Of a stretch of 64,000 nucleotides of DNA, positions 36,999 to 57,643 are shown piece by piece. A program made the position numbers and the translations under genes. The stretch comes from Sinohyriopsis cumingii (taxonomy: Eukaryota > Mollusca > Bivalvia > Unionida > Unionidae): assembly GCA_028554795.2 (NCBI GenBank), contig CM068832.1, forward strand, positions 81,921,180 through 81,985,179, read 5' to 3'. Below the pieces are notes generated by a model. It did not search any database and was not told the origin of the DNA. It saw nothing but the letters and a program-made list of their open reading frames with translations. Position 1 is the first letter of the stretch. Every line of letters begins with the position of its first letter.

Positions 36999-37004
36999 TA
37001 ATAA

Positions 37005-42687: not shown

Positions 42688-42733
42688 GAATCTCTGATTT
42701 TTAAATCGCAAGTGAGATTTTCCAAATCTGTAT

Positions 42734-42751
42734 CCCAGAAATATTTCTGGG
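42734..42751. terminator. Perfect palindrome with polyadenylation-like signal
   Basis: CCCAGAAATATTTCTGGG is an 18-bp perfect palindrome, followed by AAAAAAATAAATAAAATCC with AATAAA-type signals. It sits between the convergent penton-like and HNH genes, so it may end transcription in both directions. Confidence 0.45.
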
Positions 42752-42825
42752 GGAAAAAAATAAATAAAATCCAGGAGAATTTTCAAAAAATTAATCTTTT
42801 TTTTTTGTTTTGCGGAGATATTCAA

Positions 42826-43392: not shown

Positions 43393-43693
43393 ATATGATA
43401 TTCTGTTTGTTTAAATCGTAATTTGCTTTGAATCGATTAATATAATCTTCCTCACATTTTATCACTGACGAGGATCTTTTTTCATAATATCTCCGTAACT
43501 CACGATATTTTTTCCCTCCACAAGAGAAACATAATCTTGTTTTTCCTCGAATACCAACTTGGCAAACTAAACATCGTTGTGGTCCTTTGTTGCCTCGTCG
43601 AATTTCGTATATGTGAGCGCCACAATATTCACCTCTGCAGGATTTGTCACATGATTTTGTTGATCCGACTGTTATCCACGCGCATTGCTTCAT
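43343..43693 (-). CDS. Small zinc-binding protein
   Basis: 116 residues. CAWITVGSTKSC..SCRGEYCGAH, then CLVCQVGIRGK..LCFSCGGKKYRELRRYY, as in C. The tail is longer than in C because the frame runs on into the HNH start region. Divergent from the replicase with a 30-bp TATA-like gap. Confidence 0.8.
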   Translation of the reverse strand: MKQCAWITVGSTKSCDKSCRGEYCGAHIYEIRRGNKGPQRCLVCQVGIRGKTRLCFSCGGKKYRELRRYYEKRSSSVIKCEEDYINRFKANYDLNKQNIIYESQINDPCNENLTRV

Positions 43694-43723
43694 TATATTT
43701 AGATATTTGTCTAAAATATAATA

Positions 43724-46708
43724 ATGGATTTATTTGATCTTGATGAGGCAGAATATATCATTCCTGAAGTTGATAGTGCGAAGAAGGAATTTTTCGATGA
43801 TGGAGCGATTCATGTTTGGTCGACATGGAAAACTAACTTCGTTAATGCTACGATGAATCTAGAGCGAGCGAAAAAGATAATCGAACATATACAATCTGAA
43901 CACAAGGAAGAGCGATTTATCTTTGGAATAAAATTTATTGCACAAATGCCTGATGACATTTGGATTATTCGTGATAAACGAGATCCGGTACGCGGTGGTA
44001 AGAAAAATGTTGTTCTTGATAAAAATTCAAAACCAGGATTGCTGCTGGGGATTGATGGTCCTTATTATGCTAGGGCGTATCCTTCTAGTGCTGTTGTCTA
44101 TGGAATTTATCGGCTGAATAATAATCCTGATATGAAAAATCTACCTGCGATGAGGGAATCTCCGATGATAAATTGTGTAGCTGAGCGAGTTATCGAACAT
44201 ATGAAAAATGCTCGTCGTGGATCTGGTCTAACTCAATTGAGATTGGATAAAATTAATTCATGGGCAAAGACAGTTGTTGATGGCGCATCAATCGATGATG
44301 TTGCTGCGTTAAGTAAGAAACTTAAATTTCCTATTACGGTTAAAACACTATCGGGTGAAATATTATATTCATCGCCGTATAATTCTCGAGGAACACCAAT
44401 CGAAATTGTTGATCATAATTCACATGCGTGGAGTCAGTCGGTAATGATATTCCCACGAGATCGTGTTGTTAAGTTTTATCCCGTGGAAAAATCCACGGTG
44501 GAATCCAAAGATAGTTCCGATGCAATGTTTAGGTTTATCAAACTATTAGCCAAGTCCGATCCAATATCGATTTGGTTATTTTCTAGCGAAGAAAGATACG
44601 ATCAATTTATCTTACCACGCGGAGATATTTACCGAGATGAAATATTACATGAATCGATGAAAAATATCGCGGTGAAGTATTCATCAAATCCAGATCGATT
44701 ACTGACAAATTGCTTTACCATTTCGTCTGTTGCTGCTCATGCTGCTAGAGAAAGAAATTCGTGGAAACCTACAAGAAATGAATTTCTCAATGATATTCAA
44801 CTTAGCTGTATCGAATACGGCCATGGAGGATTATGGAATACCAAATACTATTTCGAAGATATGATTTCCGTTGATATGAGCGCATGCTATCCTGGAAGTT
44901 TCCTTGGGTATGGCGATTGTGCAAATTACTTTGCTAAATTCGGTCATCCCACCAACGAGATGACTAGAGTTGCAATTAACGGACCGTTACCCGATTTTGT
45001 CATAACCGGATTCGCTCATGTTACTTCGTTTGAACTTGCTGAAAATTTGCATAAAATTTGTTATATTTGGTTTGGTCGGCATTTATCTCAGCGAAGATGG
45101 GTCCCTACGGTATTGTTGAGATATATGCTGGATTCGTCGATGTTAATATCACTGACGGTAAGTGAAGCAATTATATCGTATAGAAAGCAGACCGAGGTGT
45201 GGTTACCCACGGATTGTGAGAACGCGAAAGATATTGGAAGAAAAATAATTGGTAAATTTACTCAAGGAGGATCAGTTGATCATAAACATCGCCACGCTAG
45301 GTTATTTATCAATGATGCTGAGATGGATTTTATTATTGCCGATACAGTGTCTCGTGGAATATTTTGCAACAGAGAAAATATTATTATTGATGGAACGAAG
45401 TTAGGTACAGTGATCACTTATCTCGATGGAGAATCCGCGCAGTATACTCATTTAAGATCATCAATGCTCGCCTATGTGAGTATTAATTTGCTGTCAATGA
45501 TAAATAAATTTTCTGATATCGCGGTAAGAGTTGCAACGGATTCATTTTATATCAATAAGAAATTTCAATGTAGATTGGAAAATTTAATCACCGATGGTTC
45601 CTGGGGAACTTGGAGAATAAAAAACGAGGATATTCTAGATTATTGTGAGGACGCGGATGTAGAAGATTGCGATAAATTTCATAAAGATAAATGCGATGAA
45701 GTATCAACAGCAGTATCAGTGTTCGATCCAATTTCACGAAACAAATTCGTTTACCTAAATGGTCCTGGCGGTAGTGGTAAAACAACACGAGCGATAAATT
45801 TATTTTCAAAATCTGATATGATCGTGTTGACTCCAACTCACAGGTTAGCGCGAGAAATAAAACAACGTGGCGTTAATTCTTGTACGTATCATAGTTATTT
45901 CAAGTATAGCGGTGGATTGTGGGATTCAGCTCGAATGGGAAACAAATATATCAACAAGATTATAATATTTGATGAAATTTGCACGGTAAATTTAGTTGTG
46001 TTAAAATCATTTCTAAGTTGGTTAGAAGAAAAAAATACTGCAGTAATAATGTGCGGCGATCATGGTCAACCTGATCCTATTGATGGTGAATCTCCTCACA
46101 GGTGGCTTAGAAATTTTGTAGATTATTATGAAGAAATTGACGCTGATTATAGATCTAATGATATTTTACTGACCGAGTTTAAAAAAATGATTCGATTGCA
46201 ACCTAATAAATTTCAATGTGATGTGATGAGAAAAATAATCGACGAAACTTCGATGGATAATTTTCTAACTTTGTGGCGTCCTGATCATCTGATCGTTGCT
46301 AGCAGAAAAATTATTCGTGATAATATTCAAGAAATACTATTTAAGCTTCACTGTGATAAATTTCCAACGTTGCAGGTGCCGTTGTGCTATAGGCCCGCTG
46401 ATACTAGAAAACAAAATATTAATGTTACTTTGCCGTGCGGAGAAGAAAAAATATTAGTTTTAAATGATATTATTTTCGTTGATATTAATCTTGTCAATGA
46501 TGCGATAAACGCAGAAAAATCACCATGGAAACTCGGGTACGCAACAACGATTCACTCATCACAGGGATTGACAGTAGATGGCCAAGTTTGGATTGTCGAT
46601 GATAGAATTTCCTGGTCAAATTTAGTTTATCTAGCAGTTTCTCGAGTAAGAAAATTATCTCAGTTAGGTAGAATTAAATTTCACATTAACGACGATGGTG
46701 GTAATTGA
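43724..46708 (+). CDS. Replicase: possible OTU-like domain, compact PolB-like core, SF1 helicase
   Basis: 994 residues. Residues 1-~260: unknown domain with Cys151 (MINCVAERV), DDVAALSKKLKFPITVKT and HNSHAW (His231/234), a spacing like OTU cysteine proteases. Residues ~360-620: polymerase-like, motif A VDMSACYP (D384), a motif B candidate RKIIGKFTQGG (507-516) and motif C VATDSFY (D606; the first Asp of the usual DTDS is Thr-preceded Ala). No clear 3'-5' exonuclease motifs. Residues 672-985: SF1 helicase with GPGGSGKT (680-687), IIIFDE (747-751), GDHGQ, HSSQG and YLAVSRVR. Overlaps the convergent integrase by 28 bp and lacks the HNH tail seen in C. Confidence 0.82.
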   Translation: MDLFDLDEAEYIIPEVDSAKKEFFDDGAIHVWSTWKTNFVNATMNLERAKKIIEHIQSEHKEERFIFGIKFIAQMPDDIWIIRDKRDPVRGGKKNVVLDKNSKPGLLLGIDGPYYARAYPSSAVVYGIYRLNNNPDMKNLPAMRESPMINCVAERVIEHMKNARRGSGLTQLRLDKINSWAKTVVDGASIDDVAALSKKLKFPITVKTLSGEILYSSPYNSRGTPIEIVDHNSHAWSQSVMIFPRDRVVKFYPVEKSTVESKDSSDAMFRFIKLLAKSDPISIWLFSSEERYDQFILPRGDIYRDEILHESMKNIAVKYSSNPDRLLTNCFTISSVAAHAARERNSWKPTRNEFLNDIQLSCIEYGHGGLWNTKYYFEDMISVDMSACYPGSFLGYGDCANYFAKFGHPTNEMTRVAINGPLPDFVITGFAHVTSFELAENLHKICYIWFGRHLSQRRWVPTVLLRYMLDSSMLISLTVSEAIISYRKQTEVWLPTDCENAKDIGRKIIGKFTQGGSVDHKHRHARLFINDAEMDFIIADTVSRGIFCNRENIIIDGTKLGTVITYLDGESAQYTHLRSSMLAYVSINLLSMINKFSDIAVRVATDSFYINKKFQCRLENLITDGSWGTWRIKNEDILDYCEDADVEDCDKFHKDKCDEVSTAVSVFDPISRNKFVYLNGPGGSGKTTRAINLFSKSDMIVLTPTHRLAREIKQRGVNSCTYHSYFKYSGGLWDSARMGNKYINKIIIFDEICTVNLVVLKSFLSWLEEKNTAVIMCGDHGQPDPIDGESPHRWLRNFVDYYEEIDADYRSNDILLTEFKKMIRLQPNKFQCDVMRKIIDETSMDNFLTLWRPDHLIVASRKIIRDNIQEILFKLHCDKFPTLQVPLCYRPADTRKQNINVTLPCGEEKILVLNDIIFVDINLVNDAINAEKSPWKLGYATTIHSSQGLTVDGQVWIVDDRISWSNLVYLAVSRVRKLSQLGRIKFHINDDGGN

Positions 46709-47631
46709 GTATCCTTTGGTATTATTTGTAATTCCTCCTTGGTAAATCCGCGTTGTGGCGCTAGTGAATCTAGAAAATAAATCGCTGGCCTTCCTGATGA
46801 TCTTGTTACAGCTGATATTTTATGTGTCGTAACACTCCAGTTTGGATCAGTTGCTCTTTTTCTGCCACCCTCGGCTTCTCCCTCCTTGTATAAATATCTT
46901 ACAATAACACTACCTAGCACAGGCGGAATTGTGGAACTTCGCTTTAGTGGTATTTTTGTTTTTGTAATTGCAATTGCGGGCTTCATTGCTATTGTTCGTG
47001 TTACTTCGTTATTTAGCGCGTTAATCACGTGAGGTAATCTTGTTACCCAATCGCGAGATCGTTTATCTTGAATAAATTCTCTCGCGTACTGATATCCGAA
47101 TAATCGTTCTGCAAGAGTTTTATTGAATCTCTCAACGATAGCTTGATTGTGATGAACACCTACAATACCGCGACGGATTTTAACATTATTCTTTTTCATC
47201 AGTGAAGTAACCGCACCGAGGAATTCTCGTCCTGGATCAACCTGGAGAAGCTTCGGCCATGTTAATGGAGATCGTGAATAAATTTCGCTAAACGCCTTAG
47301 CAATATCTGTTGCTGTTTTATTCGATAACGGTTCCGCTTCCTTGTACCTACTTGCAATATCAACAACCGTCATAACATATTTGTATATAACTCCGTCAAC
47401 GGTATCGTAAGGAAGAAACATAAGATCAGCCTGATGGACTTCATTAGGGACGCTGACAGAGAAACTCGCATATGATATTTTCTTAGGCGGAGGAAGATAA
47501 ATTTGCCAAACTGCTTGCCTCGATAGCCACGATTCAGCGACAGATTGCTTTACTTTTGCTGCCTTAGCAAGTTTGTCTATTGCTGATTTTCCTCGCCAAA
47601 ATCCTCGCGGAGAATAATATATTTGCTCCAT
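46681..47631 (-). CDS. Retroviral-type DDE integrase (rve)
   Basis: 316 residues. D69 (HQADLMFLP), D132 (LLQVDPGREF) and E167 (AIVERFNKTLAE) form the catalytic triad. The C-terminus has DPNWSVTTHKISAV and QRGFTKEELQIIP. All catalytic residues are present, so this copy could be active. The start codon overlaps the PLA2 stop (TAATG), suggesting coupled expression; C keeps the same order with a 2-bp gap. Confidence 0.93.
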   Translation of the reverse strand: MEQIYYSPRGFWRGKSAIDKLAKAAKVKQSVAESWLSRQAVWQIYLPPPKKISYASFSVSVPNEVHQADLMFLPYDTVDGVIYKYVMTVVDIASRYKEAEPLSNKTATDIAKAFSEIYSRSPLTWPKLLQVDPGREFLGAVTSLMKKNNVKIRRGIVGVHHNQAIVERFNKTLAERLFGYQYAREFIQDKRSRDWVTRLPHVINALNNEVTRTIAMKPAIAITKTKIPLKRSSTIPPVLGSVIVRYLYKEGEAEGGRKRATDPNWSVTTHKISAVTRSSGRPAIYFLDSLAPQRGFTKEELQIIPKDTQLPPSSLM

Positions 47632-48139
47632 TATAAATTACCAGCACCTAGTACTAATTTACCTTTCATCGCGCCTTTTATTAACCAAGTTGCCAATTTC
47701 TCTTTGAAATTTTTATCAGGAATAGCATCTATTGCGTGAATTAATTTAATATCAGCGAGATGTCTTTGTTGTAAATCTCCGCTGCGATATGCAAGATCGT
47801 GATAGTAGCATGCGTTATCGATGGCGTTTACTGGATCCTCGCCAGGATTTGGTTGATTATTATCGTTAAGTCTTATATCTAATCTTGTACCAGGTCCGCA
47901 GTAATTATATCCTGGTAAATGTTTCTCTCCGGGATATTTCGCCCAGGGAGTTCCAGGTAGATTTGTTAAGGAGGTTGCAATATCTCCTCCGGTTCTACTT
48001 TTTTTTTTACAAATCTAAACTTAATTGTCTTGCAAACTTCACATTCTCCCTTGATTGCATTTCTGTTGTTGCGTGTAACGACTTCGATTGGATTTATCGT
48101 AGCAGTTCGAGTGCGACACTTAACACAATATGAATCCAT
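47631..48139 (-). pseudogene. Phospholipase A2-like protein, single frameshift at an A10 run
   Basis: Starts MDSYCVKCRTRT at 48,139 with a CxxC zinc-ribbon N-terminus. At about 48,000 a run of ten A (T10 on the given strand) shifts the frame by one base. From there the other frame gives GGDIATSLTNLPGTPWAKY, the calcium loop YCGPGT and the catalytic CYYHDLAY, running cleanly to the TAA at 47,631-47,633. One base at the homopolymer separates a whole gene from a broken one. It may be a sequencing error, a real mutation, or slippage on A10. Confidence 0.82.
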
Positions 48140-48153
48140 AATATTCTAATAAC

Positions 48154-48804
48154 ATGAATGTAATTGATTTTTCAGCCACAAAAAAACGCGAGCAAGTAAA
48201 ACATATCGAGGCATTACCAAATTCGATTAGAATGATAATCATTGGACCATCTGGTTCTGGAAAAACGCAATTGTTGCTAAATTTGATTATGCGATGGTTA
48301 AAATGGGACAAATTGTATTTGGTTGCGCCGTCTGTTGATGATCAGCGATGTTATCAGGTATTAAAAGAATTTAGCGATAATACTGAGGATGGCACGATAG
48401 AATTTATAACGGATATCAATGAGGCTCCATCAGTGGAGAATTTAGATGGCGATGTTAATAATCTTGTCGTATTCGATGATGTAATGCTGGATAAGCAAAC
48501 TAACCCAGCTAGGATATTCTCGCGTGGCCGACATAGGAACACCGATGTGATTTACGTGACGCAGCGATATACGCAAATTCCGAAGGTGATTAGAGATAAT
48601 TGTAACATTTTATCAGTGTTCAATGGCGTTGATACTCACACGCTAAGGAATATTCATCAAACTTGGTGCAACGGCGATATGGACATAAATAAATTCAAAA
48701 ATTTCTTCAGTCACGCTCAGGCAACACCACATGGTTTTGTCACGATTAATCTTCATGATCCACGTAGTAGGTATCGAATCGGTCTTGATCAGATTTACTC
48801 ATAA
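48154..48804 (+). CDS. A32/FtsK-type packaging ATPase
   Basis: 216 residues. Walker A GPSGSGKTQ at 31-39, Walker B-like NNLVVFDDVM, RGRHRNTDVIYVTQRYTQIPKVIRDN, and the C-terminus HGFVTINLHDPRSRYRIG. This family pumps the genome into preformed capsids in Polintons, adintoviruses and larger relatives. Only 14 bp separate it from the divergent PLA2 start. It ends 2 bp before the right repeat homology begins. Intact, unlike the C copy. Confidence 0.93.
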   Translation: MNVIDFSATKKREQVKHIEALPNSIRMIIIGPSGSGKTQLLLNLIMRWLKWDKLYLVAPSVDDQRCYQVLKEFSDNTEDGTIEFITDINEAPSVENLDGDVNNLVVFDDVMLDKQTNPARIFSRGRHRNTDVIYVTQRYTQIPKVIRDNCNILSVFNGVDTHTLRNIHQTWCNGDMDINKFKNFFSHAQATPHGFVTINLHDPRSRYRIGLDQIYS

Positions 48805-48805
48805 A

Positions 48806-49021
48806 ATTGCAGCCGGAATTTGCAATCACAAATAAATTTTACTACCCCCCCTAAATTTTGTTGTTTTTTTTTATGCCTAAAAATGCACTTTGGGTCGAAA
48901 TTTTGCGGATTAATTTGCGCAGGAAGGTTTATTTTTGCAATCTGAGGCTTCTACGGAGAAAGTTTGTGTGGGAGGCTTAATTTTATCTGTGCCACCTGGT
49001 CTGTACGCCCTCCCTGCTGCT
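48806..49021 (-). repeat. Element D right terminal inverted repeat
   Basis: Reverse complement of the left repeat with many substitutions (about 85 percent identity by eye). Ends CCCTCCCTGCTGCT. Confidence 0.9.
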
Positions 49022-49028
49022 AAAAGTC

Positions 49029-49097
49029 GCAGAAAATATATATAAAACAGCTTTATCGAAAAAATATAAGCAGAAAATTATCTTTAAGTATCAATAA
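49029..49097 (+). pseudogene. HNH endonuclease of element C, 3' remnant
   Basis: After the second copy of the 7-bp target (49,022-49,028) the codons match the C-terminus of the HNH protein at 19,875 (AENI... to KYKQKIIF) and end at a TAA at 49,095-49,097. This fixes the D insertion site within one gene. Confidence 0.9.
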
Positions 49098-49780
49098 CTA
49101 TCATCACCACATTATTAACTATCATCACCACATTATTAACTATCATCACCACATTGAATTAATTTTTTTAATTTATGTCACAGAGGTCCTCCATACACTA
49201 CTGAATTTTTGATTTAAGGGGAGATTACTTTGTAATATATAGTTTTCTTCGTAGATGGTTGGTTTTTTATGATCGTAATTAGTCAGTTTAACTAATTACA
49301 TCGTATAGTGCCGACGAACCTAACTCATTAGACTCATAAGTATTATTTATGGTTTTTAAATATTTTCCCATCATACAACACATGATAATATTATTGATCC
49401 GTAGGAAGCTGTGTGTGTAAACAGAAACCGTTACTCATTGTAATTGACCTGCAGTTGTGTGTTCACTGAACTTACAATTCTGGAAAGTTCTTTGACTGGT
49501 GCATTAATGCCACTGTTATTATTGATTTTCGGCCTGCTCTTAGGAAACCAGCTACAAATACAGAAACTGTTATAAATACAGAAACTATTATTCAGAAACT
49601 GTTATAAATACAGAAACTATTATTCAGAAACTGTTATAAATACAGAAACCGCTACAAATACAGAAACCGCTACAAATACAGAAACCGTTATTATTCAGAA
49701 ACCGCTGTTTAGTGTAAATATTGGTTCCTTAGCTATATAGCTAGCTATATATTAACTTCCGAAACATATGTTCGTAACAA
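49098..49780. repeat. AT-rich spacer with short tandem repeats (element C)
   Basis: Three tandem copies of a 21-bp unit (CATCACCACATTATTAACTAT) at about 49,101-49,155 and a run of CAGAAACTGTTATAAATA-type ~18-bp units at about 49,558-49,707. No gene seen. The B copy of the spacer (20.4-20.84 kb) lacks these repeats. Confidence 0.7.
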
Positions 49781-49783
49781 TGT

Positions 49784-49885
49784 TTGATAGCTCGATCAGT
49801 ATGGTATTGGACTGTGGCGCTCGCGGTCCAGGATCGAATCCCCATGGCTGACAATTTGTCGGTGGTGCGCATAATTGCGATTTTT
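49784..49885 (+). ncRNA. tRNA-like Pol III transcription unit (element C copy)
   Basis: Box A-like TAGCTCGATCAGTATGG at 49,788-49,804, an anticodon-arm-like GGAC...GTCC, box B GGATCGAATCC at 49,831-49,841 and a T5 run at 49,881-49,885. Order, box B-to-T5 distance and flanking words (GTCGGTGG, TTGCGATTTTTAT) are shared with B at 20,853-20,950. The acceptor stem is not convincing, so this is more likely a tRNA-derived small RNA than a tRNA. It parallels the Pol III small RNAs of adenoviruses in position-independent terms only. Inferred from sequence. Confidence 0.62.
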
Positions 49886-49917
49886 ATAATAGTGGGGGGA
49901 ACCGCAAGAACCCCTCC

Positions 49918-50013
49918 GCTCAGCAAATTCACAACCACAATATTGACTGGTTGTTGATACATATTTTCGTATCACCCACTGGATTAATTATTGTGGGTGT
50001 GATTTTGCTGAGC
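49918..50013 (+). ncRNA. 96-nt hairpin following the tRNA-like unit
   Basis: GCTCAGCAAA pairs perfectly with TTTGCTGAGC at the ends. Inside, TCAC pairs with GTGA and CCACAATA with TATTGTGG, and the apex has GATAC/GTATC. B has a weaker version at the same place. Long stem with small internal loops, like a primary microRNA or a structured regulatory RNA. Confidence 0.65.
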
Positions 50014-50060
50014 GTATATGTTTGTACTGTCCTTAGTTAGTACCGTTTCATTCATAATCT

Positions 50061-50610
50061 GAGCTCGCTAATACACTCGATAGGGGCTCTTCATTCATTG
50101 TATATAACCATTTCATTGTATATATGTTATATGTATATCCTCTAAACTTGGTAGATTGCGGTGGCAAGCTACGAGTTTAATGAGGACTGTGCTGTCCTTG
50201 TGCTGTCCTTAGTTAGTGCCGTTTCATTCATAATCTGAGCTCGCTAATACACTCGATAGGGGCTCTTCATTCATTGTATATATGTTATATGTATATCCTC
50301 TAAGCTTGGTAGATTGTGGTGGCAAGCTACGAGTTTAATGAGGACTGCTGTGCTGTCCTTAGTTAGTTATATGTTATATGTATATCCTCTAAACTTGGTA
50401 GATTGCGGTGGCAAGCTACGAGTTTATGAGGGTTGTGCCGTCCTCCCTCTTGGGCCTCTAGACCGTTGTTTGGCGGGTTAGGGGCTCTCGTAGAGGGAAT
50501 ATTTGCCTAATGAACTTGGTAGATTGCGGTGGCAAGCTATGAGTTCTTGGCTGTGCTGTCCCTGAAACATCCCGACGAACTCGCTAATACACTCGATAGG
50601 TGTTCCGGGA
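50061..50610 (+). ncRNA. Stem-loop array, element C (eight hairpins)
   Basis: Two hairpin types alternate. Short type with loop core CGCTAATACACTCGATAG at about 50,061-50,089, 50,237-50,265 and 50,570-50,610. Long type with core GGTAGATTGCGGTGGCAAG at about 50,139-50,185, 50,297-50,343, 50,386-50,432 and 50,512-50,546. A divergent one is at 50,445-50,497 (CCCTC/GAGGG ends). Outer arms co-vary: GAGC/GCTC, CGAAC/GTTC, CCTCTAAACT/AGTTTAATGAGG. Linkers repeat GTGCTGTCCTTAGTTAGT. The array ends 36 bp before the coiled-coil gene. B has a related array. Confidence 0.75.
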
Positions 50611-50645
50611 TATTTTTTTTATTTTAAAGATTTATATATTATATA

Positions 50646-51158
50646 ATGAACCATGAAAATATCAATGATGTAATTGTCGCTATTAAAAAATTAAAAAAAG
50701 ATGGAATTAATATATCTGATGAACTTAATCCTGAAAAAATAGTTTCTGACTTTGAGATTTTACAAGAACGTAAAACCATGGGGACACACACACTATCATC
50801 TGAATACAGGCTCATGAAACGGATTCAATCGGCAATGTTTCAGTCGCTAGCTACCGTAGAAGATGATCATGTGAAGGAGTTCGTTCCTCTTTCTACCGCC
50901 GTAGAAAGAATTAAGTCGTTATTATCCCACGAGTATGAGGCAAAGAAAACGATTAGTACTCGCATAAGACTATTGAGAAAAATAATGTCAGATCGTGAAA
51001 CGATCCAAGTTAACCCCGTTACTGATGAAACGATCCAAGGTAACTTCGTTGGTGAAACGATCCAAGGTAACTTCGTTGGTGAAACGATCCAAGGTAACTT
51101 CGTTACTGGTGATAATGAAAATGAAAGTTTTGGTAACTGGGGTCCAAGTCAACGCTGA
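50646..51158 (+). CDS. Small helical protein with 9-residue C-terminal repeats
   Basis: 170 residues. The N-terminal ~120 residues are helical and charged (NDVIVAIKKLKKDGINISDELNPEKI; YRLMKRIQSAMFQSL; YEAKKTISTRIRLLRKIM). Residues ~123-157 hold four tandem copies of ETIQGNFVG-type repeats from a 27-bp DNA repeat, then GNWGPSQR. A TATATATTATATAATG sequence covers the start. Decayed homologue in B at 21,577; absent from D. Always just downstream of the hairpin array, so it may bind or depend on those RNAs (inference). No family recognised. Confidence 0.68.
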   Translation: MNHENINDVIVAIKKLKKDGINISDELNPEKIVSDFEILQERKTMGTHTLSSEYRLMKRIQSAMFQSLATVEDDHVKEFVPLSTAVERIKSLLSHEYEAKKTISTRIRLLRKIMSDRETIQVNPVTDETIQGNFVGETIQGNFVGETIQGNFVTGDNENESFGNWGPSQR

Positions 51159-51171
51159 CCACGTGTATTGA

Positions 51172-51625
51172 TAGTCAAAATCAAGAAAGTTCTAACCTTG
51201 TCAAATTTGTTCCTAATAAATTTTATTTATTAATAATATTATTAATAAATAATATTATTTTTACTTAGGATTTATTTTTTTTTACTAAAATCAAGAAAAA
51301 TGCACAAATTACTTGATTTTGACGGGGTAGTTGGTAGTCAAAATCAAAGAAAAATGCACGAATTACTTGATTTCTGACGGGGTAGTTGGTAGTCAAAATC
51401 AGGAAAATTGAGCAATTTCGTTGTATTTTAGTAAAAAAAAATAAAAATCTCAGTAAAAATAATATTATTAATAAATAAAATTAATTTATAATAAATAAAA
51501 TTTGTTAGGAACAATTTGACAAGGTTAGAACTTTCTTGATTTTGACGGGGTAGTTGGTAGTCAAAATCAAGTAGTTCGTGCATTTTTATGTTTCTGAGGG
51601 GGTAGTTGGTAGTCAAAATCAAGTA
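51172..51625. repeat. Large inverted repeat with G-rich-loop hairpins: possible origin
   Basis: Outer arms of ~75-90 bp (AGTCAAAATCAAGAAAGTTC... to AATAATATTATT; and its complement at about 51,459-51,568) enclose about 215 bp. Four copies of GGGGTAGTTGGTAGTCAAAATCA occur (about 51,324, 51,379, 51,547, 51,598). In two of them TTGATTTTGAC precedes, giving perfect 11-bp stems (51,313-51,347 and 51,536-51,570) with the loop GGGGTAGTTGGTA. Very AT-rich otherwise. No counterpart seen in B or D. Confidence 0.7.
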
Positions 51626-51811
51626 ATTTGTACAATTTCAGTAAAAATCAGGAAAATTAATAAATATTATTTTTTTTGTGATAGAAATTTTAATTTTACT
51701 TTCATCGACTAGCTTTTTTAGTTGCCTGGGCCGATTAATTTGTACCAAACACAAATTTGTGCTAGTAATAATAAAATATTTTTTTAAGTTGATCGAATTT
51801 GATTCTGAAGA

Positions 51812-51872
51812 TCTACGACAAAAGTCCTTAGACAGAAATCCTTAAGACAAAAGTCTTTACGACAAAAGTCCT
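51812..51872. repeat. Short tandem repeat ACGACAAAAGTCCTTAAG
   Basis: Four imperfect 16-18 bp units (GACAAAAGTCCTTA, GACAGAAATCCTTAA, GACAAAAGTCTTTAC, GACAAAAGTCCTTAA), each with a small GAC..GTC dyad, at the 3' end of the penton-like gene. Possibly part of its 3' untranslated region. Confidence 0.6.
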
Positions 51873-53290
51873 TAAGATTTCACATACAGATTTATTACAA
51901 GCTCTTCTTCACGTATGTCAATCAAGCGATTAAGGTGGTCTGTGAGTTTAAAATTGATTCGTGTTAACATATTATTGTGACACCGCAAATACACGGGATT
52001 AGTTGGTTCTTGCACGATTAAATTTCCAGGGGGAACTTGTGGTGTGAACGTGTATAGGATGTATCCTTGTTGAGCCTGATTTGATCTTCCGAGATCTATT
52101 TGATAGCTGCCATCGATTACGTCACAAACCAGATTGACCGCGACCGTCGGTGTTATATTAACGATCCGCGGGGATACGTGTCTTCCGCCGCCGTGTGGAT
52201 CATTATCATGTCTAAGAACAATTGGAGGTGGAATTAATTTTCTCCATGCATCGAGTATTTTAGGAAAAAACTCATCAATGACATCATTGATAGATTTTCT
52301 CAACTCGGTTACACTATACCCGGGAAATTTATAATTTGGTACATCGGCTTCTGTTAATTTATATTTTTCTAACCATTTATATGCATCAGAATTTTCAGGT
52401 GATTCTAAAATAATAAGCATCTCCTGAACTATTCGGTTATTAATATATTCCATATCTGATATAAGCTGATTTAATATTTCCACACGCGTGATGATTTTTT
52501 CACGCGATGACGCTGATATGTCAAAAATATGTTCGTTAAAATATTGATTTAGTTGATCTAGTTGTTTTTTACACTCTTGATTGATTTCCTGAAAAAATCT
52601 AATAATCGTTTCTCGATAAAAACCCCAATGACGTCCTGTTTCTCCCGGATTTTTAAAAAACCATCCCTCAACTTCACCGAAGAAGACAAAATTGTGAAGC
52701 ATTGATTTATTTTTTATAATACGTAGATGTTCCCTGTATGATGGATTAATTTCATGATATGATTGTCTATCCGTGACATAATCAGACTTTTTCGGTTCTG
52801 GTGGTATCGGTGTTATCGGTGGTGATATTTCAGGCCATCCTAGCACGGATCTTATCGTGGACTGATAAATATCAACGGCATAATCAGGCGAGTTTATTTC
52901 AACCGTCGAGGACAACGTCGGCTCGTGAACGTTTATTGATATTTTTGATTCCTTTCCCGTTATTGATTTTATTCTACGCGCAAATTCCTCACCGATCTCT
53001 TCAATCTGGTAACTGCCGGTTGGTATTCCAACAACAACCCAGTCAGGTGTTCCATCGGGTTTGTTGTTGTTAGTAAATACGAGCGAATTATTTGCTGGTG
53101 TACCATTAAATGATTTTGATCTGATATTTGGCCAGCTGTAATATACTCGTAATTGTGCTAGTGCTATTTCTTTTACTGGAATTGCAATAGGAAAATTAAC
53201 ACTAAATTCAGGATTAGTTGAACTTACCGAGATCATCGTTATCTTTGGCGGAGTTGTGTTGGTCACGATCTGCTGGAGTAATTCTGTCAT
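51872..53290 (-). CDS. Penton-like / minor capsid protein candidate
   Basis: I place the start at the Met that aligns with D (MTELLQQIVTNTTPP, 53,290), not the upstream Met. About 472 residues. Shares EIALAQLRVYYSWPNIRSKS, NNSLVF, VVGIPTGSYQIEEI and VDIYQSTIRSVLGWPE with D, and YLRCHNNMLTRINFKLTD at the C-terminus. The middle is divergent and helical. Overlaps the membrane-protein gene by 77 bp, as in D. Confidence 0.5.
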   Translation of the reverse strand: MTELLQQIVTNTTPPKITMISVSSTNPEFSVNFPIAIPVKEIALAQLRVYYSWPNIRSKSFNGTPANNSLVFTNNNKPDGTPDWVVVGIPTGSYQIEEIGEEFARRIKSITGKESKISINVHEPTLSSTVEINSPDYAVDIYQSTIRSVLGWPEISPPITPIPPEPKKSDYVTDRQSYHEINPSYREHLRIIKNKSMLHNFVFFGEVEGWFFKNPGETGRHWGFYRETIIRFFQEINQECKKQLDQLNQYFNEHIFDISASSREKIITRVEILNQLISDMEYINNRIVQEMLIILESPENSDAYKWLEKYKLTEADVPNYKFPGYSVTELRKSINDVIDEFFPKILDAWRKLIPPPIVLRHDNDPHGGGRHVSPRIVNITPTVAVNLVCDVIDGSYQIDLGRSNQAQQGYILYTFTPQVPPGNLIVQEPTNPVYLRCHNNMLTRINFKLTDHLNRLIDIREEELVINLYVKS

Positions 53291-53738
53291 TATTGATACT
53301 TGTATCTTTAATACCTTCACCGTATATTTTGGTCATCATTGAAAATTCGAAATCAGATATAATTCCATCACTGAGACTCGCTGATAACAACGAGGATAAT
53401 TTCGAGTATGCTACCGTCGCTGTATGTAATTTTATTTTGTAATCGGATAATTTTTCGTTCGTACAAGTACATATTTTTTTTGTGATGATACTAAGCACAC
53501 CTGCAATAGTTGTTGCTGCTGATATACAGATAGTTACAGCTACTGGTGCCATCGTTGTCAACGCTGATAATATTACACCGGTTCCAGCAACAACAGCGGA
53601 TACTGAATAAACAATCACATCAACGATAACCAATCGTCGTCGATATTTTTTTACTTTTACTGTATATTGATCAACTTGATCTTTTAGCGCAGCCTGCCAT
53701 TCACGCGCTTGATTGTATCTGTATTGTGCACCGTCCAT
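53214..53738 (-). CDS. Two-helix membrane protein
   Basis: 174 residues. YRYNQAREWQAALKDQ N-terminus, then VIVYSVSAVVAGTGVIL and VAVTICISAATTIAGVLSII hydrophobic segments, a CTCTNEKL stretch and a soluble tail. Homologue at 40,692. Function unknown. Confidence 0.75.
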   Translation of the reverse strand: MDGAQYRYNQAREWQAALKDQVDQYTVKVKKYRRRLVIVDVIVYSVSAVVAGTGVILSALTTMAPVAVTICISAATTIAGVLSIITKKICTCTNEKLSDYKIKLHTATVAYSKLSSLLSASLSDGIISDFEFSMMTKIYGEGIKDTSINNDRITPADRDQHNSAKDNDDLGKFN

Positions 53739-53746
53739 ATATATTT

Positions 53747-54754
53747 TTATGCCGTAACCAATTGAGGTGTTTCAGCTACAAATTCCAAACACCACCAGAA
53801 GGATGTTGCGGTTAATTTCTTATCATCTGCTTCCAGAATAAATATTTCTTCGGTTCCGCTATTTAGTACAACAGATACAACCCCGGAAAACCTGTCTGTG
53901 GAATGACGCCATGGAAACGTTGTAAATATTTCAAATTTTGCAGCACTGAACACAGACAGCCTGTACACGCCAGTGACTGTTGCGGTATATTTGATAGTAT
54001 TATTTTGCTGCGACCATGTTGCAAATCCCGATGATACCGTGCATACGATGTTTGTGATATGCCCGGGAGTTATTGCAGCTGGAATTTTAATCAAATTGGT
54101 TTTACTGACAATCTCAGGAATTCCCGCTACGACGTCTTGCTGTGTTTGTTTGATCGTGTCTAGGTCAGTTTTGATATCAACGAGTTTCATGTCAATGGCG
54201 CGTGGAGTACCGAAGAATTTATCTATGGTATCATCGGTTTTTTGAAAATTTCTTCGAAATCTTCCAAAAGTTCCTGCGTGAACGTCATACTCAGCCCGTA
54301 ACGTGGATAATTTATTATCTACGGTGTCGACGTATTTTTTTGTTGCTGCGTCTTCGTCAGATGTTGGATCTCTTAAAACTACTATTTTATTTCCGTTCAT
54401 ACTGAGTTCACCCGTCATTGTGTCACCGGTGTTTCTCACGCGATTAGCAACACTTTTTGCAATTTCATCTCTGATGGTTGCTAATGATACACTTGAATCT
54501 CTGATTTTGCCGCTATCAGTAAACACGGGAATATTATCTGTAACTGCACCGAGTACTCGCCGGACTATATCATTCCATTTGATATTGCTGGTTTTTAGTT
54601 TACCATATCGATCTTGAAAAATAACAACCTCATCTGGATTAACTGCAGCAAGGTTCATAATATCAGCGAGGTCATCTTTAGTCGCATACTTTGACAGATC
54701 AACGTCGGATTTTATTTTCTTACTAGTAGAAGATCTTCCGTAAATGTCAACCAT
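53747..54754 (-). CDS. Fibre-like attachment protein
   Basis: 335 residues. N-terminal MVDIYGRSSTSKK and NPDEVVIFQDRYGKLKTSNIK match D. Next come TGDTMTGELSMNGNKIVVL and DAATKKYVDTVDNKL, a motif set common in phage tail fibres and collar-like repeats. A short coiled segment follows, then a C-terminal ~120-residue beta-rich head (VYRLSVFSAAKFEIF). The shaft and head differ from D while the anchor is conserved, as expected for a host-binding protein under change. It starts 18 bp after the protease stop. Confidence 0.68.
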   Translation of the reverse strand: MVDIYGRSSTSKKIKSDVDLSKYATKDDLADIMNLAAVNPDEVVIFQDRYGKLKTSNIKWNDIVRRVLGAVTDNIPVFTDSGKIRDSSVSLATIRDEIAKSVANRVRNTGDTMTGELSMNGNKIVVLRDPTSDEDAATKKYVDTVDNKLSTLRAEYDVHAGTFGRFRRNFQKTDDTIDKFFGTPRAIDMKLVDIKTDLDTIKQTQQDVVAGIPEIVSKTNLIKIPAAITPGHITNIVCTVSSGFATWSQQNNTIKYTATVTGVYRLSVFSAAKFEIFTTFPWRHSTDRFSGVVSVVLNSGTEEIFILEADDKKLTATSFWWCLEFVAETPQLVTA

Positions 54755-54772
54755 TATAATAAGATCCGTTGT

Positions 54773-55252
54773 TTAAAATGCTTTACGCGCAACAAATCGG
54801 TTGCTTGTATAATCGTGCACGACTTTATGTGGCGGCTTGGATGATTTTGATATTGCGTCGAGTACATTAATTACTTCACGGCCGCATATTGGCGGATCTG
54901 TCATTGTTTGTGTGGGTAGCGTTGAATACCAAACTTTGGAACCTCTGGTTGTTGCGTGGAGTGGTGCGACATACTTGATAAATTCAACAGGTGGAGCTAA
55001 CCCGTACGAATCAAAATAAACAATTCCACGCGGATCAACCGCGTATGATACCCAATGAGTACCGGGTCCGGAACGTTTGTCAAGATTAATAATACCTGTT
55101 TCTAGTTTGTTTGGTTGTTTCGGTAATTGATCTCGCATAAAAACACCTCTAAAGGCGGATATTTTTAATTTTTTAGCAGCATCAAGTAAATCAAAATTTG
55201 ATGCTGGAACGTCTAACGAAATGATCCTGGAAGCCTTAGGCCTCTCCCCCAA
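54773..55252 (-). CDS. Adenain-like cysteine protease
   Basis: 159 residues. His66 in GPGTHWVSY, Asp81 in VYFDSYG, Gln115 in PTQTMTDPP and Cys123 in PICGRE, the adenain order and spacing (adenain itself is about 200 residues). The N-terminus (MGERPKASRI) is encoded within the end of the pX-like gene in another frame (40-bp overlap). Expected to cleave GG and GxG sites in the structural proteins after assembly. Confidence 0.88.
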   Translation of the reverse strand: MGERPKASRIISLDVPASNFDLLDAAKKLKISAFRGVFMRDQLPKQPNKLETGIINLDKRSGPGTHWVSYAVDPRGIVYFDSYGLAPPVEFIKYVAPLHATTRGSKVWYSTLPTQTMTDPPICGREVINVLDAISKSSKPPHKVVHDYTSNRFVARKAF

Positions 55253-55665
55253 CGAGATCCCGGTAATCTTAGACCGCGTCCCTTTTTTTTGTACCCCTGC
55301 CCTGTTGCTTTCTTTAGTGCCATTCCAGCGGCTGTTCCAACAGCACCTAACGCGGCCGCTTTTGCTACGGCTGGAGCAGCTGCAGCTATTAATGCCGGAA
55401 TGGCCGCAAGTAGTGGAAATATACCACCCGTTTTAACCATGTCTTTGATGGCGCTCGGGGAGAGATGAAATTGAACTCCAGTTTTTGATTCTAGGGCTTT
55501 ATTGAAATGTTTAATCTGATTATTTGTCAACGATAATTTGTTTGGACCACCACTAATATGATCTCGTTTCAGTGATATTTTAGTTCCGCATTTGTTGGCG
55601 GTTTTTGATTGAAGCTTTTTTACCTGACCCGGGGTCAGAGTAACATTAACATGACTATACGACAT
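55213..55665 (-). CDS. pX-like basic core protein
   Basis: 150 residues. MSYSHVNVTLTPGQVKKLQS, ISGGPNKLSLTNNQ, the hydrophobic GGIFPLLAAIPALIAAAAP segment and a basic Gly/Arg-rich tail with two GRGLRLPGS-type repeats. Resembles adenovirus pX in the GGI-x-PLL hydrophobic segment and basic character. Likely binds the packaged genome. Confidence 0.72.
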   Translation of the reverse strand: MSYSHVNVTLTPGQVKKLQSKTANKCGTKISLKRDHISGGPNKLSLTNNQIKHFNKALESKTGVQFHLSPSAIKDMVKTGGIFPLLAAIPALIAAAAPAVAKAAALGAVGTAAGMALKKATGQGYKKKGRGLRLPGSRWGRGLRLPGSFR

Positions 55666-55699
55666 TTTTATATAAAATATATTTTTCTAAATAACACGA

Positions 55700-57148
55700 T
55701 TAAAGATTTTCCACCGGTGCATCAACGACCCACATTCGACCACTGCCACCTTCAAGTAACATGGCCTTGTCGCTAAGTATGACCGCGATCGCCTTGTAGG
55801 TGCCGCGAACAATTGGTGGACCAGCTATATCAGGAGGAGGGTTAGTAACATGAGCTCGAAAGTGTATATCAACAACAGATTGTTTGGATAAATCAAGATG
55901 TTCTAGTGAAAAATAATAAATCGGATATAGACCTGTAAAATCTAGTTGTGATATTTGCAAACCAGTATCTATATTTTGATCACGTCCCATGAATGACATT
56001 AAACGATGATATGCGCGCGCTACATGATTTTGAACAAAATTTAGTTGTATATTTTCTGTTGGTTCTTGATGTCCATTTATCCGTAAGGAAACTTCATTAA
56101 CTCCAAGGTTATCAAATATCATATGTGAACGTTGTTGATTATTCGTCCGAGCATTATCTTGTAGTGCAATAAAAATATGTCGTGGTGCAGAAACACCCTG
56201 TTGTGATGCTATATGCCATGTAAATAAACCATTAATACTGCTTTGAGCAGCATCTGTGGTTACTGTTAACCATGATAGCAATGATTTACCGCCTTGATCC
56301 ATAAAAGATAGTAATTTTTGTTCCTCAGTAATAGATGGAGTCATTACTGGCATCCACAATGAAAGTTTTGTTATATCTACTTTACCAGCATCAGCAACAC
56401 CAGCACCTCGCCAGATTGCATCATTATCATTACCTTTTCTTACGAGCACAATTGTGTGTTTAGCTCCAAAGATGACCTTTCTAACATTTCTGCAAAACCC
56501 AAAGATGTGAGATAATGGAATTGCACACGAAAAATTTCTATTATCTCCCGACAGCGCTGATCGGCGTGTTGCAAATCCTAAGTTGAAAGTCGTGGCAATA
56601 TCTTTTATGATTTCAAAATCACCTGCTGGTCTAGTTTCACGATCGGGGTTGGCACCTTCTAACTGATTAGCAACAGAAACACCCTGCGGTGAAAGTAACT
56701 TGATATACTGATTATGGTTGGCGTTGTCGGTGATATCCTTAGCAAACATCATTGTTGGACCAGCTGATCTTGTAAAGTCGTCAGAATATCTCGCCAGACC
56801 AATTATTGTTGTAGCAACATCAACATCCTTCTGAATTGATTCAATATTTTTTCCATCAATCATGTATGTGGCGCTATCAAACAGTGCCATAATTCCGTTG
56901 TTGACAAAACCAACACGCAGATTGGCACCATATGCCGTATCATCCCCCTTTACAAGTGTACCTTCTACTTCAATAAACGCTTCAGCGGGCAAGAAATATC
57001 TACTTGTATCATGAACCTGTAATTCGATTCTCCCCGGATGATTTGGTTGTCTTGCGTCATAAGAATAAAACTGATAATCACGTACTGACTCGTACTTAAG
57101 GACAGGTGCCTCCATATCAAATGCTGGGTCTGATTCGCGCCTGAACAT
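55700..57148 (-). CDS. Major capsid protein (double jelly-roll type)
   Basis: I place the start at the Met aligned with D (MFRRESDPAFDMEAPV, 57,148) and not at 57,184. About 482 residues. Same conserved blocks as D: HDTSRYFLPAEAFIEV, GVGFVNNGIMALF, ATYMIDGKNIES, IPLSHIFGFC, LLSFMDQGGKS, WHIASQQGVSAPRHIF, FMGRDQNIDTGLQIS and VDAPVENL. A ~30-residue insert after the DDFTRSAGP block is unique to C. Open throughout, in contrast to B. Confidence 0.86.
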   Translation of the reverse strand: MFRRESDPAFDMEAPVLKYESVRDYQFYSYDARQPNHPGRIELQVHDTSRYFLPAEAFIEVEGTLVKGDDTAYGANLRVGFVNNGIMALFDSATYMIDGKNIESIQKDVDVATTIIGLARYSDDFTRSAGPTMMFAKDITDNANHNQYIKLLSPQGVSVANQLEGANPDRETRPAGDFEIIKDIATTFNLGFATRRSALSGDNRNFSCAIPLSHIFGFCRNVRKVIFGAKHTIVLVRKGNDNDAIWRGAGVADAGKVDITKLSLWMPVMTPSITEEQKLLSFMDQGGKSLLSWLTVTTDAAQSSINGLFTWHIASQQGVSAPRHIFIALQDNARTNNQQRSHMIFDNLGVNEVSLRINGHQEPTENIQLNFVQNHVARAYHRLMSFMGRDQNIDTGLQISQLDFTGLYPIYYFSLEHLDLSKQSVVDIHFRAHVTNPPPDIAGPPIVRGTYKAIAVILSDKAMLLEGGSGRMWVVDAPVENL

Positions 57149-57180
57149 TTTATTATAGTTACCATTTTTCCAAATGATGA

Positions 57181-57615
57181 TCATCGTCGACGAAGACCGC
57201 CCCCTGCTATTAAATTTGCTGTTATATTTTTTTCTGCTTCTTCAGATATCGCCGCTAGTTTTTGATTTGCAGCTTGATTTATTATTTTACTGACATCTGC
57301 AGGCATCACCTCAGTACTTGCCAGTTTCACCGGTGATTGTTGTTTTCGTCGCAATAATCGTGATAATCTTTCTTTGATCGCCGAGAACGCCTTACCAGCA
57401 ACATTGACAATTGCACCAGGAGCTTTATCACGAACAATATCAATAGCCTTCATCGATAATTGTTTTGCTACAGGTGCTACTTTGGGAGCTATCCTCGTGA
57501 ATAATCCCCGAATGACATCACCAAGTCCATTTCCGTAAATTGCTTCATAGATTGGTAATCGTGAGTTTACCGCTCTAACCTGTGTGGGTTTACGATGATT
57601 ATCATGCACAATCAT
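57181..57615 (-). CDS. pVI-like membrane-active minor capsid protein
   Basis: 144 residues. HRKPTQVRAVNSRLPIYEA, then IYGNGLGDVIRG with an I-x-G-x-G adenain-type site near residue 28, an amphipathic Ala/Ile/Lys region ending LSRLLRRKQQ, and a C-terminal GGGLRRR. Homologous to the D protein; the C-terminal part PADVSKIINQAANQKL matches D well. Confidence 0.62.
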   Translation of the reverse strand: MIVHDNHRKPTQVRAVNSRLPIYEAIYGNGLGDVIRGLFTRIAPKVAPVAKQLSMKAIDIVRDKAPGAIVNVAGKAFSAIKERLSRLLRRKQQSPVKLASTEVMPADVSKIINQAANQKLAAISEEAEKNITANLIAGGGLRRR

Positions 57616-57643
57616 CTTATTTTATTTACCATTTATCTAACAA

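What the first reader, a model, noticed from the sequence alone, without database searches (positions are those of the whole stretch)
50061..50610. Tandem array of eight covarying stem-loops: candidate new element-encoded RNA family
Two hairpin types repeat with fixed inner cores while the outer arms change in compensatory fashion (GAGC/GCTC versus CGAAC/GTTC; CCTC/GAGG). Linkers repeat GTGCTGTCCTTAGTTAGT. A related array with different arm sequences lies at the same genomic position in the decayed element B. Retained pairing with changed sequence argues for RNA (or single-stranded DNA) structure under selection. Possible roles are small-RNA precursors, protein-binding decoys against host defence, or packaging signals. 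The 4-nt loops and ~20-bp stems are short for Drosha substrates, so microRNA precursors are not the default reading.
Basis: partly seen in the sequence, partly recalled or inferred. Interest (0 to 1): 0.88.

Follow-up and report, generated by a model that had tools for sequence, protein, structure and literature searches.

The report
Hypervariable RNA-hairpin array in Polintons
A virus-like mobile element, present in hundreds of copies in what looks like a mollusc genome, carries a row of short sequences that would fold into RNA hairpins; evolution kept their shape while changing their letters and kept out the stop signals of RNA polymerase III, but what the hairpins do is not known.

Summary
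Eight stem-loops stand at 50061-50610, with a related array at the same place in element B. Divergent copies from the host genome show strong covariation: 8 of 16 pairs in 20 hairpins change on both sides (0 of 500 shuffles as high), and exchanging arms costs about 6 kcal/mol (0 of 20,000 permutations as good). G.U exceeds A.C on the + strand (48:16). Runs of four or more T, which stop RNA polymerase III, are missing from the arrays (3 seen, 22.7 expected in 12 stretches; A runs normal) until a terminal T run. So the array is probably a + strand pol III transcript. Beside it lie a covarying long hairpin, ORF170 and, in many lineages, a separate A-box/B-box/T5 unit. The hp2 core occurs 2,504 times in the genome. 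The array is hypervariable: of 70 elements chosen by ORF170, 37 have hp1+hp2, 18 hp1 only, and 15 only the terminal hairpin. Cis roles such as packaging or origin are therefore unlikely. That the hairpins act on host small-RNA or dsRNA-binding proteins is inference. It matches no Rfam family and my literature searches showed no such locus. New variant of a known kind (viral non-coding RNA loci).

The parts
28608..59083 (.). outer Polinton/Maverick-type element ('C') that owns the array; 250-nt perfect terminal inverted repeats 28608-28857 / 58834-59083, flanking direct repeat CCCCT
34279..49021 (.). nested second Polinton inserted in the HNH gene of the outer element (direct repeat AAAAGTC); no ORF170, pol III-pattern or short-hairpin-model hit in it
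49788..49885 (+). type-2 pol III-like unit: A-box-like TAGCTCG at 49788, B box GATCGAATC at 49832-49840, trailer hairpins, T5 at 49881-49885; candidate ~98-nt RNA
   Evidence: only two such arrangements in the 64-kb window, both syntenic and both 98 nt
49917..50014 (+). long hairpin (40 bp, TTTT in the apical loop), covarying between lineages
50015..50620 (+). stretch without a T4+ run up to the terminal T8: candidate pol III transcript that holds the array
50023..50036 (+). linker motif TGTACTGTCCTTAG (copy 1)
50061..50089 (+). hp1 copy 1
50138..50186 (+). hp2 copy 1
50188..50212 (+). linker motifs (two overlapping)
50237..50265 (+). hp1 copy 2
50296..50344 (+). hp2 copy 2
50349..50362 (+). 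linker motif TGTGCTGTCCTTAG
50384..50431 (+). hp2 copy 3
50443..50497 (+). hp2 variant ('v6'); look-alikes in other lineages (CTAGACTGTTGTTTGACAGGTTAG)
50505..50551 (+). hp2 copy 4 (distal type)
50569..50620 (+). terminal hp1-type hairpin followed by T8; kept in elements without an array
50646..51158 (+). ORF170, accessory protein of unknown function next to the array
20853..20950 (+). element B: pol III-like unit, syntenic
20999..21078 (+). element B: long hairpin
21228..21272 (+). element B: hp2-type hairpin B1 (damaged 3' arm)
21324..21376 (+). element B: hp2-type hairpin B2 (own fold weak, z -0.5)
21391..21441 (+). element B: hp2-type hairpin B3
21466..21528 (+). element B: hp2-type hairpin B4, followed by a T run
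21577..21949 (+). element B: broken ORF170 homologue

Best explanation
It is an accessory non-coding RNA locus of animal Polintons. SHOWN by sequence: (1) the short hairpins are one family whose helix is kept on the + strand while the letters change; (2) the array lies between a covarying long hairpin and ORF170, and is free of T4+ runs up to a terminal T run; (3) hairpin number and type vary widely between close copies. INFERRED: the array is transcribed as one + strand RNA, most likely by RNA polymerase III, starting after the long hairpin (whose loop holds TTTT) and ending at the terminal T run; the upstream A-box/B-box/T5 unit, where present, is a separate short pol III RNA. The hairpins (about 16-19 bp, ~4-nt loops) then bind or feed host dsRNA/small-RNA proteins (Dicer, Argonaute or a PKR/ADAR-like binder), as decoys or as short-hairpin small-RNA precursors; copies raise the dose, and fast turnover reflects conflict with host or rival elements.
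For: Covariation: 8 of 16 pairs with changes on both sides in 20 hairpins, 0 of 500 shuffles; 22 such cells against 8.0; RNAalifold finds the helix unaided, 7 of 13 pairs with double changes. Arm exchange: native mean -19.0, swapped -12.9 kcal/mol, 0 of 20,000 permutations; long hairpins -42.8 and -32.3, 0 of 20,000, 13 of 17 predicted pairs with double changes. Strand: G.U 48, A.C 16 in the helix; 18 to 3 in C, near-copies counted, and 9 to 5 in B; linkers 45 + and 0 -. Pol III: T4+ runs 3 seen, 22.7 expected, 0 of 300 shuffles as low, in 12 array stretches; A4+ 21 against 19.3; just upstream T4+ 31 against 15.5; in the C family no TTTT in 87 of 88 measurable spans of 90 loci. Upstream unit: two pattern hits in the window, both syntenic, simulated mean 0.375; B box to terminator 47/54 identical B against C, fourfold sites 139/232. 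Covariance model: in the window it hits nine hairpins, all in the two arrays and on + (six of them were in the training set).
Against: No transcript or small-RNA data. Within the young family, paired-site substitutions keep pairing no more than chance (7 of 24 against 6.8 of 23.5; v6 3 of 7 against 3.3 of 6.2; hp1 internal 3 of 4 against 2.5 of 5.8; hp1 terminal 0 of 3 against 0.5 of 5.8). B2's own fold is no better than shuffles. The own 3' arm is the best partner for only 7 of 20 short and 5 of 10 long hairpins. Two arrays do hold T4+ runs (L100 one, L107 two). No promoter for the array was identified. The upstream pol III-like unit is missing from the stretches of four of nine array-bearing divergent loci (L100, L105, L106, L107) and the strict pattern is met in only 3 of 14; it is no tRNA by ARAGORN or Rfam, and the pattern was written with the two sites known. 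A box to B box is only 25/38 identical.
Confidence: 0.45

Rival explanations
1. DNA-level repeats: tandem imperfect palindromes that bind an element or host protein as enhancer or replication origin, like baculovirus hrs.
For: Tandem ~48-nt imperfect palindromes, intergenic, variable number and individually dispensable, as described for hrs (passages of PMC6669502). Linker motif kept.
Against: G.U exceeds A.C on one strand and T4+ but not A4+ runs are missing; a dsDNA site has no reason for either. Arms change in compensating ways. Elements without an array exist in number.
Confidence: 0.13
2. A quasi-palindromic minisatellite with no function: replication template switching keeps copying one arm onto the other and slippage changes the copy number.
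For: 46 different arrangements in 90 loci; recent near-identical tandem copies; chance-level pairing outcome of recent substitutions; elements without an array.
Against: Template switching makes perfect palindromes, but the family keeps a bulge at columns 14/15, a mismatch at 19/35 in most members, and many G.U pairs. v6 is found in 56 of 57 hp2-bearing arrays of the young family with look-alikes in other lineages. T4+ runs are avoided on one strand only.
Confidence: 0.15
3. Cis-acting mRNA structure: hairpins in the 5' leader of ORF170 or the 3' tail of the HNH gene, controlling translation, stability or 3' ends.
For: HNH, array and ORF170 are on the same strand; the last hairpin ends 34 nt (C) and 48 nt (B) before the ORF170 ATG.
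Against: A TATA-rich block lies between array and ATG in array-bearing and array-less loci alike, so ORF170 may have its own promoter; array-less elements keep ORF170 frames; a pol II leader has no reason to avoid T4.
Confidence: 0.1
4. Packaging signal or capsid-binding RNA/ssDNA element.
Against: Missing in cis from 15 of 70 amplified elements and not found in the nested element; central, not terminal.
Confidence: 0.03

Closest known systems
Murine gammaherpesvirus 68 TMERs (tRNA-miRNA-encoded RNAs)
   Same: A viral locus with pol III promoters and hairpins; dispensable for lytic replication and for establishing latency (passages of PMC8223928).
   Different: There the hairpins follow a tRNA-like structure in the same pol III transcript and give miRNAs. 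Here a T5 and the TTTT of the long hairpin separate the pol III-like unit from the array, the unit is missing beside some arrays, and no small RNA is shown.
Adenovirus VA RNAs / EBV EBERs
   Same: Short viral RNAs with type-2 pol III promoters that are not tRNAs; the upstream candidate here is ~98 nt.
   Different: No sequence relation tested; no array of short hairpins beside VA or EBER genes (recalled).
Ago-processed short hairpins (AgoshRNA / miR-451 type)
   Same: A short stem (<19 bp) and G-U/U-G at the top of the stem favour Ago2 processing (abstract of PMC4138324); here U.G stands in 9 of 20 and 7 of 20 members at the two top pairs and loops are ~4 nt.
   Different: No processing shown; no guide sequence conserved across lineages.
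Baculovirus homologous regions (hrs)
   Same: Tandem imperfect palindromes, variable number, no single one essential.
   Different: One-strand wobble excess, one-strand T-run avoidance and compensatory change point to RNA; one array per element.
Non-coding RNA genes of polinton-like viruses in protists
   Same: PLVs/virophages can carry ncRNA genes: tRNAs, group I introns, a few Rfam miRNA and other matches (passages of PMC12220804).
   Different: Those were found with Rfam and ARAGORN; this family is found by neither, and its host looks like an animal.

Membership tests
Polinton/Maverick element (owner of the array) | terminal inverted repeats with short target-site duplication | tested here: met
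   250-nt perfect IR starting AGCAGCAG, direct repeat CCCCT (5 bp; 6 bp is the recalled norm); nested element AAAAGTC
Polinton/Maverick element (owner of the array) | retrovirus-like integrase, A32-like ATPase, double-jelly-roll capsid protein | tested here: met
   PF00665, PF04665, PF21738
Polinton/Maverick element (owner of the array) | protein-primed DNA polymerase B | tested here: inconclusive
   Pfam gives only helicase-type domains of the 994-aa protein of the nested element; polymerase motifs seen by eye (recalled); in the outer element only parts 12-358 and 813-992 of it are matched
MGHV68 TMER-type locus | internal A and B box followed by a pol III terminator | tested here: met
   for the window; B boxes of 90 of 90 young-family loci fit GWTCRANNC; among 14 divergent loci the strict pattern is met in 3 and a B-box-like match beside the trailer motif in 7
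MGHV68 TMER-type locus | hairpins lie within the same pol III transcript as the tRNA-like part | tested here: not met
   T5 at 49881-49885 before the hairpins; TTTT in the long-hairpin loop
MGHV68 TMER-type locus | hairpins processed to miRNAs | not testable with these tools
   no RNA data
tRNA gene | cloverleaf recognised by ARAGORN / Rfam RF00005 | tested here: not met
   (ARAGORN run in its bacterial setting)
Pol III transcript (array) | no T4+ run before a terminal T run on the transcribed strand | tested here: met
   10 of 12 stretches without any; 3 runs against 22.7 expected
Pol III transcript (array) | recognisable pol III promoter of its own | tested here: inconclusive
   none identified; not searched beyond the type-2 pattern
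Known RNA family (Rfam 15) | match at gathering score | tested here: not met
   none in the window; only matches below gathering score; none
Animal microRNA precursor | conserved mature arm and Dicer/Drosha products | not testable with these tools
   the long hairpin shares ATCACCCAC on its 3' arm in C, B and L109 but not in all ten sequences
Baculovirus hr | double-stranded palindrome conserved as protein-binding site | tested here: inconclusive
   strand-asymmetric wobble, compensatory change and T-run avoidance speak against it; protein binding was not testable

The most novel reading that the evidence does not exclude
Animal Polintons carry a modular RNA weapon: a recombining array of Argonaute- or Dicer-sized short hairpins, made by RNA polymerase III, beside a 40-bp hairpin, which titrates or hijacks the host small-RNA machinery (or silences rival elements) and diversifies by shuffling cassettes, as accessory genes do in phage hot spots.
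Probability: 0.22. Interest if true: 0.88.

Novelty: new variant of a known kind. Interest (0 to 1): 0.72.

Why it matters
Polintons are thought to be close to the root of several eukaryotic DNA virus groups (recalled), and little is known of their biology in animals. A structured RNA locus kept in divergent lineages, and present in hundreds of young copies of one genome, gives a direct handle on how such elements deal with host RNA defences. Copies with and without the array are natural contrasts, so the question becomes testable with ordinary RNA sequencing of the host animal.

Tried and rejected
Rfam/tRNA identity: nothing above threshold. IMG/VR relatives by ORF170, ATPase, a hairpin pattern and capsid protein: none. 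ORF170 in 5.8 billion proteins: none at E<=0.001. ORF170 structure: mean pLDDT 51.5, not interpreted. Within the young family, substitution counting gives no covariation signal (its part on the distal hp2 returned 0 copies, a fault of my script, and was not repeated); shared variants keep low energies, but that comparison ignores indels and is weak. In one search only 2 of 15 pairs had double changes, with C6v and B1 left out (C6v misaligned by one base, B1 damaged); pairs with double changes (198 of 500 shuffles as high) and pair types (468 of 500) did not exceed shuffles, the other three measures did. In 'further pair types' is not significant (44 of 500). Its 20 hairpins were picked by eye: 6 from the window and 14 from five of the 14 divergent loci (L100 4, L101 1, L105 3, L106 2, L107 4), not every hairpin there. 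The long-hairpin set (10 sequences) left out L101 (degraded), L100 and L108 (none recognised by eye), L103 (unrelated) and L112 and L099 (near-copies of C and B). with six hairpins gave 31 of 20,000 permutations as good, near the floor of 28 set by the identity order itself. Pol III reading of the array: I first dropped it because one search counted T runs in 4 of 9 divergent arrays. On rechecking, two of those (L101, L112) were terminal runs or runs beyond the array; the corrected counts support pol III, and I raised the best explanation from 0.42 to 0.45 and the novel case from 0.20 to 0.22, lowering the rivals. In one search the second group is labelled 8 but holds 9 stretches. Packaging, origin: see rivals. 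Papers: searches (listings and abstract starts); passages of PMC8223928, PMC12220804 and PMC6669502; outline and abstract of PMC4138324. I saw no paper on such an array in those listings; most subscription journals and all preprints are outside that library.

Full report
WHERE IT LIES. The window holds several Polinton/Maverick-type elements. The array belongs to the outer element C, bounded by perfect 250-nt inverted repeats at 28608-28857 and 58834-59083 with a flanking direct repeat CCCCT; a second element (34279-49021, direct repeat AAAAGTC) is inserted in its HNH gene. Integrase (PF00665), A32-like ATPase (PF04665) and double-jelly-roll capsid protein (PF21738) are recognised; the polymerase is named from motifs by recall, Pfam reporting only helicase-type domains. 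Named capsid-protein relatives include proteins of the freshwater mussels Sinanodonta woodiana and Potamilus streckersoni (67% and 50% identical over part of the protein) and a more distant Hydra protein; the host is a 2.9-Gb genome, so a unionid-like mollusc is likely but inferred. Gene order around the array is the same in element B: polymerase (-), HNH (+), array, ORF170 (+), capsid genes (-). The nested element has 138 nt between its corresponding genes (42688-42825), and no ORF170, pol III-pattern or short-hairpin-model hit.

THE PARTS. Reading + strand in C and B: (i) an A-box-like TAGCTCG, B box GATCGAATC and T5, 49788-49885. A pattern for this arrangement hits the 64-kb window exactly twice on + and never on -, at the two syntenic places, both 98 nt, against a simulated mean of 0.375 per 64 kb in 40 simulations (the pattern was written with the sites known). 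B box to terminator is 47/54 identical between B and C and A box to B box 25/38, whereas fourfold-degenerate sites of five coding stretches are 139/232 identical. Across 90 young-family loci of the host genome there are 25 distinct versions of the unit and each B box fits GWTCRANNC. In 14 divergent loci the strict pattern is met in 3 (L099, L111, L112) and a B-box-like match beside the trailer motif in 7 (those and L101, L104, L109, L110); it is missing from four array-bearing stretches (L100, L105, L106, L107), so the unit and the array are not strictly linked. (ii) A long hairpin, 49917-50014, shuffle z -9.8. (iii) The array. (iv) A terminal hairpin with T7-11 (run found in 88 of 90 loci). 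(v) ORF170, without database relatives at E<=0.001; between B and C its amino acids are kept (75 of 109) better than fourfold sites (12 of 26); dN is 0.24, dS could not be estimated.

THE ARRAY IS REAL AND ITS STRUCTURE IS KEPT. Eight hairpins are present. Four hp2 and one variant (v6) are homologous to four hairpins of B. To get further copies I searched the host genome: the 24-nt hp2 core occurs 2,504 times, its reversed control 0 times; the first 100 or so places, which are listed, fall in clusters. 20 such loci and 70 loci chosen by ORF170 (one of them the window itself) show the same order of parts, the content of the array apart. Fourteen divergent ORF170 loci were then taken. On 20 hairpins from the window and five divergent loci, aligned by sequence, 8 of 16 pairs change on both sides (shuffled 3.9; 0 of 500 as high), 22 cells against 8.0, covariation score 0.331 against 0.229; sliding the partner by one column drops pairing from 86% to 52% or less. 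RNAalifold finds the helix unaided. An alignment-free test agrees: native hairpins average -19.0 kcal/mol, arm-exchanged ones -12.9, 0 of 20,000 permutations as good; for the nine window hairpins alone 0 of 20,000 and for seven distinct ones 3 of 20,000, the floor being 4. The long hairpin behaves the same (-42.8 and -32.3, 0 of 20,000; 13 of 17 predicted pairs doubly changed). A covariance model made from the 20 finds nine hairpins in the window (six of them in its training set), all in the two arrays and on +, nothing else there at E<=1. Over 20 sources four weak matches lie on the opposite strand of stronger ones. Six matches to hp1-type hairpins of L109 and L111, not in the training set (E 7.7e-6 to 0.024), suggest that hp1 and hp2 are one family.

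RNA RATHER THAN DNA. In the aligned helix G.U pairs outnumber A.C mismatches 48 to 16; in a strand-neutral alignment 18 to 3 in element C (near-copies counted) and 9 to 5 in decayed B. Linkers (TTGTGCYGTCCTTA) are all on + (45 to 0; 12 of 16 stretches hold any). The linker also stands in L102, where the covariance model finds no hairpin.

SIGN OF POLYMERASE III. Runs of four or more T on the transcribed strand stop pol III. From first linker to terminal T run, 12 stretches (C, B and 10 divergent loci) hold 3 such runs (L100 one, L107 two) against 22.7 in dinucleotide shuffles, 0 of 300 as low; without three near-copies or hairpin-less stretches (9 left) 3 against 19.9. A4+ runs are normal (21 against 19.3) and T3+ nearly so (78 against 88.8). 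The ~259 nt before the first linker hold 31 against 15.5, so the avoidance starts with the array. In the young family 87 of 88 measurable spans lack TTTT, but these are not independent. The long-hairpin loop holds TTTT in C, B, L102, L104-L107 and L109-L111, so that a pol III start would lie after it. No promoter for the array was identified; the repeated linker is a candidate.

RESULTS AGAINST. Within the young family, distinct substitutions at paired sites keep pairing at chance level (7 of 24 against 6.8 of 23.5 for hp2; likewise v6 and both hp1 sets): most are likely damage after insertion, and the family alone would not have proved selection. B2 folds no better than shuffles. Only 7 of 20 (short) and 5 of 10 (long) 5' arms find their own 3' arm the best partner. 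Some pair-type counts do not exceed shuffles.

HYPERVARIABILITY. By motif, 90 loci show 46 different arrangements of hp1, hp2, v6 and linkers. Of the 70 loci chosen by ORF170, 37 have hp1+hp2, 18 hp1 only (in L076 just the terminal one) and 15 only the terminal hairpin without the hp1 core (the 20 loci chosen by the hp2 core taken out). On a tree of 50 ORF170 stretches the three array types need 10 changes where 2 would do (shuffled 13.4, so there is some clustering). Branch support is poor and starred branches alone force only 2 changes for the hp2-bearing and for the array-less group, but L044 (no array) and L045 (full array) have identical rows. Exchange or fast loss and gain is thus likely, not proven. 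Among the 14 divergent loci, nine carry arrays (L099, L100, L101, L105, L106, L107, L109, L111, L112), L102 has linkers only, L104, L108 and L110 hold a different stretch in its place, and L103 is unrelated upstream (by eye). The array is an accessory that copies can lack in cis; such copies may have been moved in trans, so a trans-acting benefit is not excluded.

HOW IT MAY WORK. Shown: conserved structure, strand, T-run avoidance, turnover. Inferred: transcription and function. Short stems with ~4-nt loops and wobble pairs near the loop resemble Argonaute-processed short hairpins (abstract of PMC4138324) and, as decoys, would occupy dsRNA-binding proteins; nothing here tests either. A TATA-rich block between array and ORF170 is present with and without the array, so the array is probably not the ORF170 leader.

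AGAINST WHAT IS KNOWN. It works most like the tRNA-like/hairpin loci of gammaherpesvirus 68, but fails one defining feature (hairpins in the same transcript as the tRNA-like part) and is not filed there. No Rfam family matches. Polinton-like viruses of protists carry tRNAs and group I introns (PMC12220804, passages); this kind of array is not named in the passages I saw. In eight literature searches I saw no description of such an array.

Noticed in passing
34279-49021: A second Polinton is nested in the HNH gene of the outer element, with ~85% alike inverted ends and direct repeat AAAAGTC; no RNA array was found in it.
   Followed up: partly
43724-46708: The polymerase-position protein (994 aa) carries helicase-type domains in its C-terminal third; Pfam does not recognise the polymerase part. 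Pieces of the same gene recur in the outer element.
   Followed up: no
51174-51546: A 110-nt inverted repeat (71% complementary arms) around a tandem 55-nt repeat lies just after ORF170, between the convergent ORF170 and capsid-side genes.
   Followed up: no
L104, L108, L110 (fetched stretches): In place of the hairpin array these elements hold another shared stretch (from about AAACAGTAGCGTGGATG in L104); perhaps a different exchangeable cassette.
   Followed up: no
L102, about 690-950: Linker motifs and TGTAAATA repeats without hairpins: the linker can exist without the stem-loops.
   Followed up: partly
genome G000: Large recent burst: 2,504 exact hp2 cores, and at least 167 ORF170 matches, all but three of the listed ones without a stop inside, in one 2.9-Gb genome.
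   Followed up: partly
50995-51104: The C-terminal part of ORF170 contains an in-frame 27-nt tandem repeat (GETIQGNFV); open-frame lengths differ between genome copies, perhaps through this repeat.
   Followed up: no
2691-4198: Fragment of a further polymerase gene (38-46% identical to that of the nested element), from another, old element.
   Followed up: no
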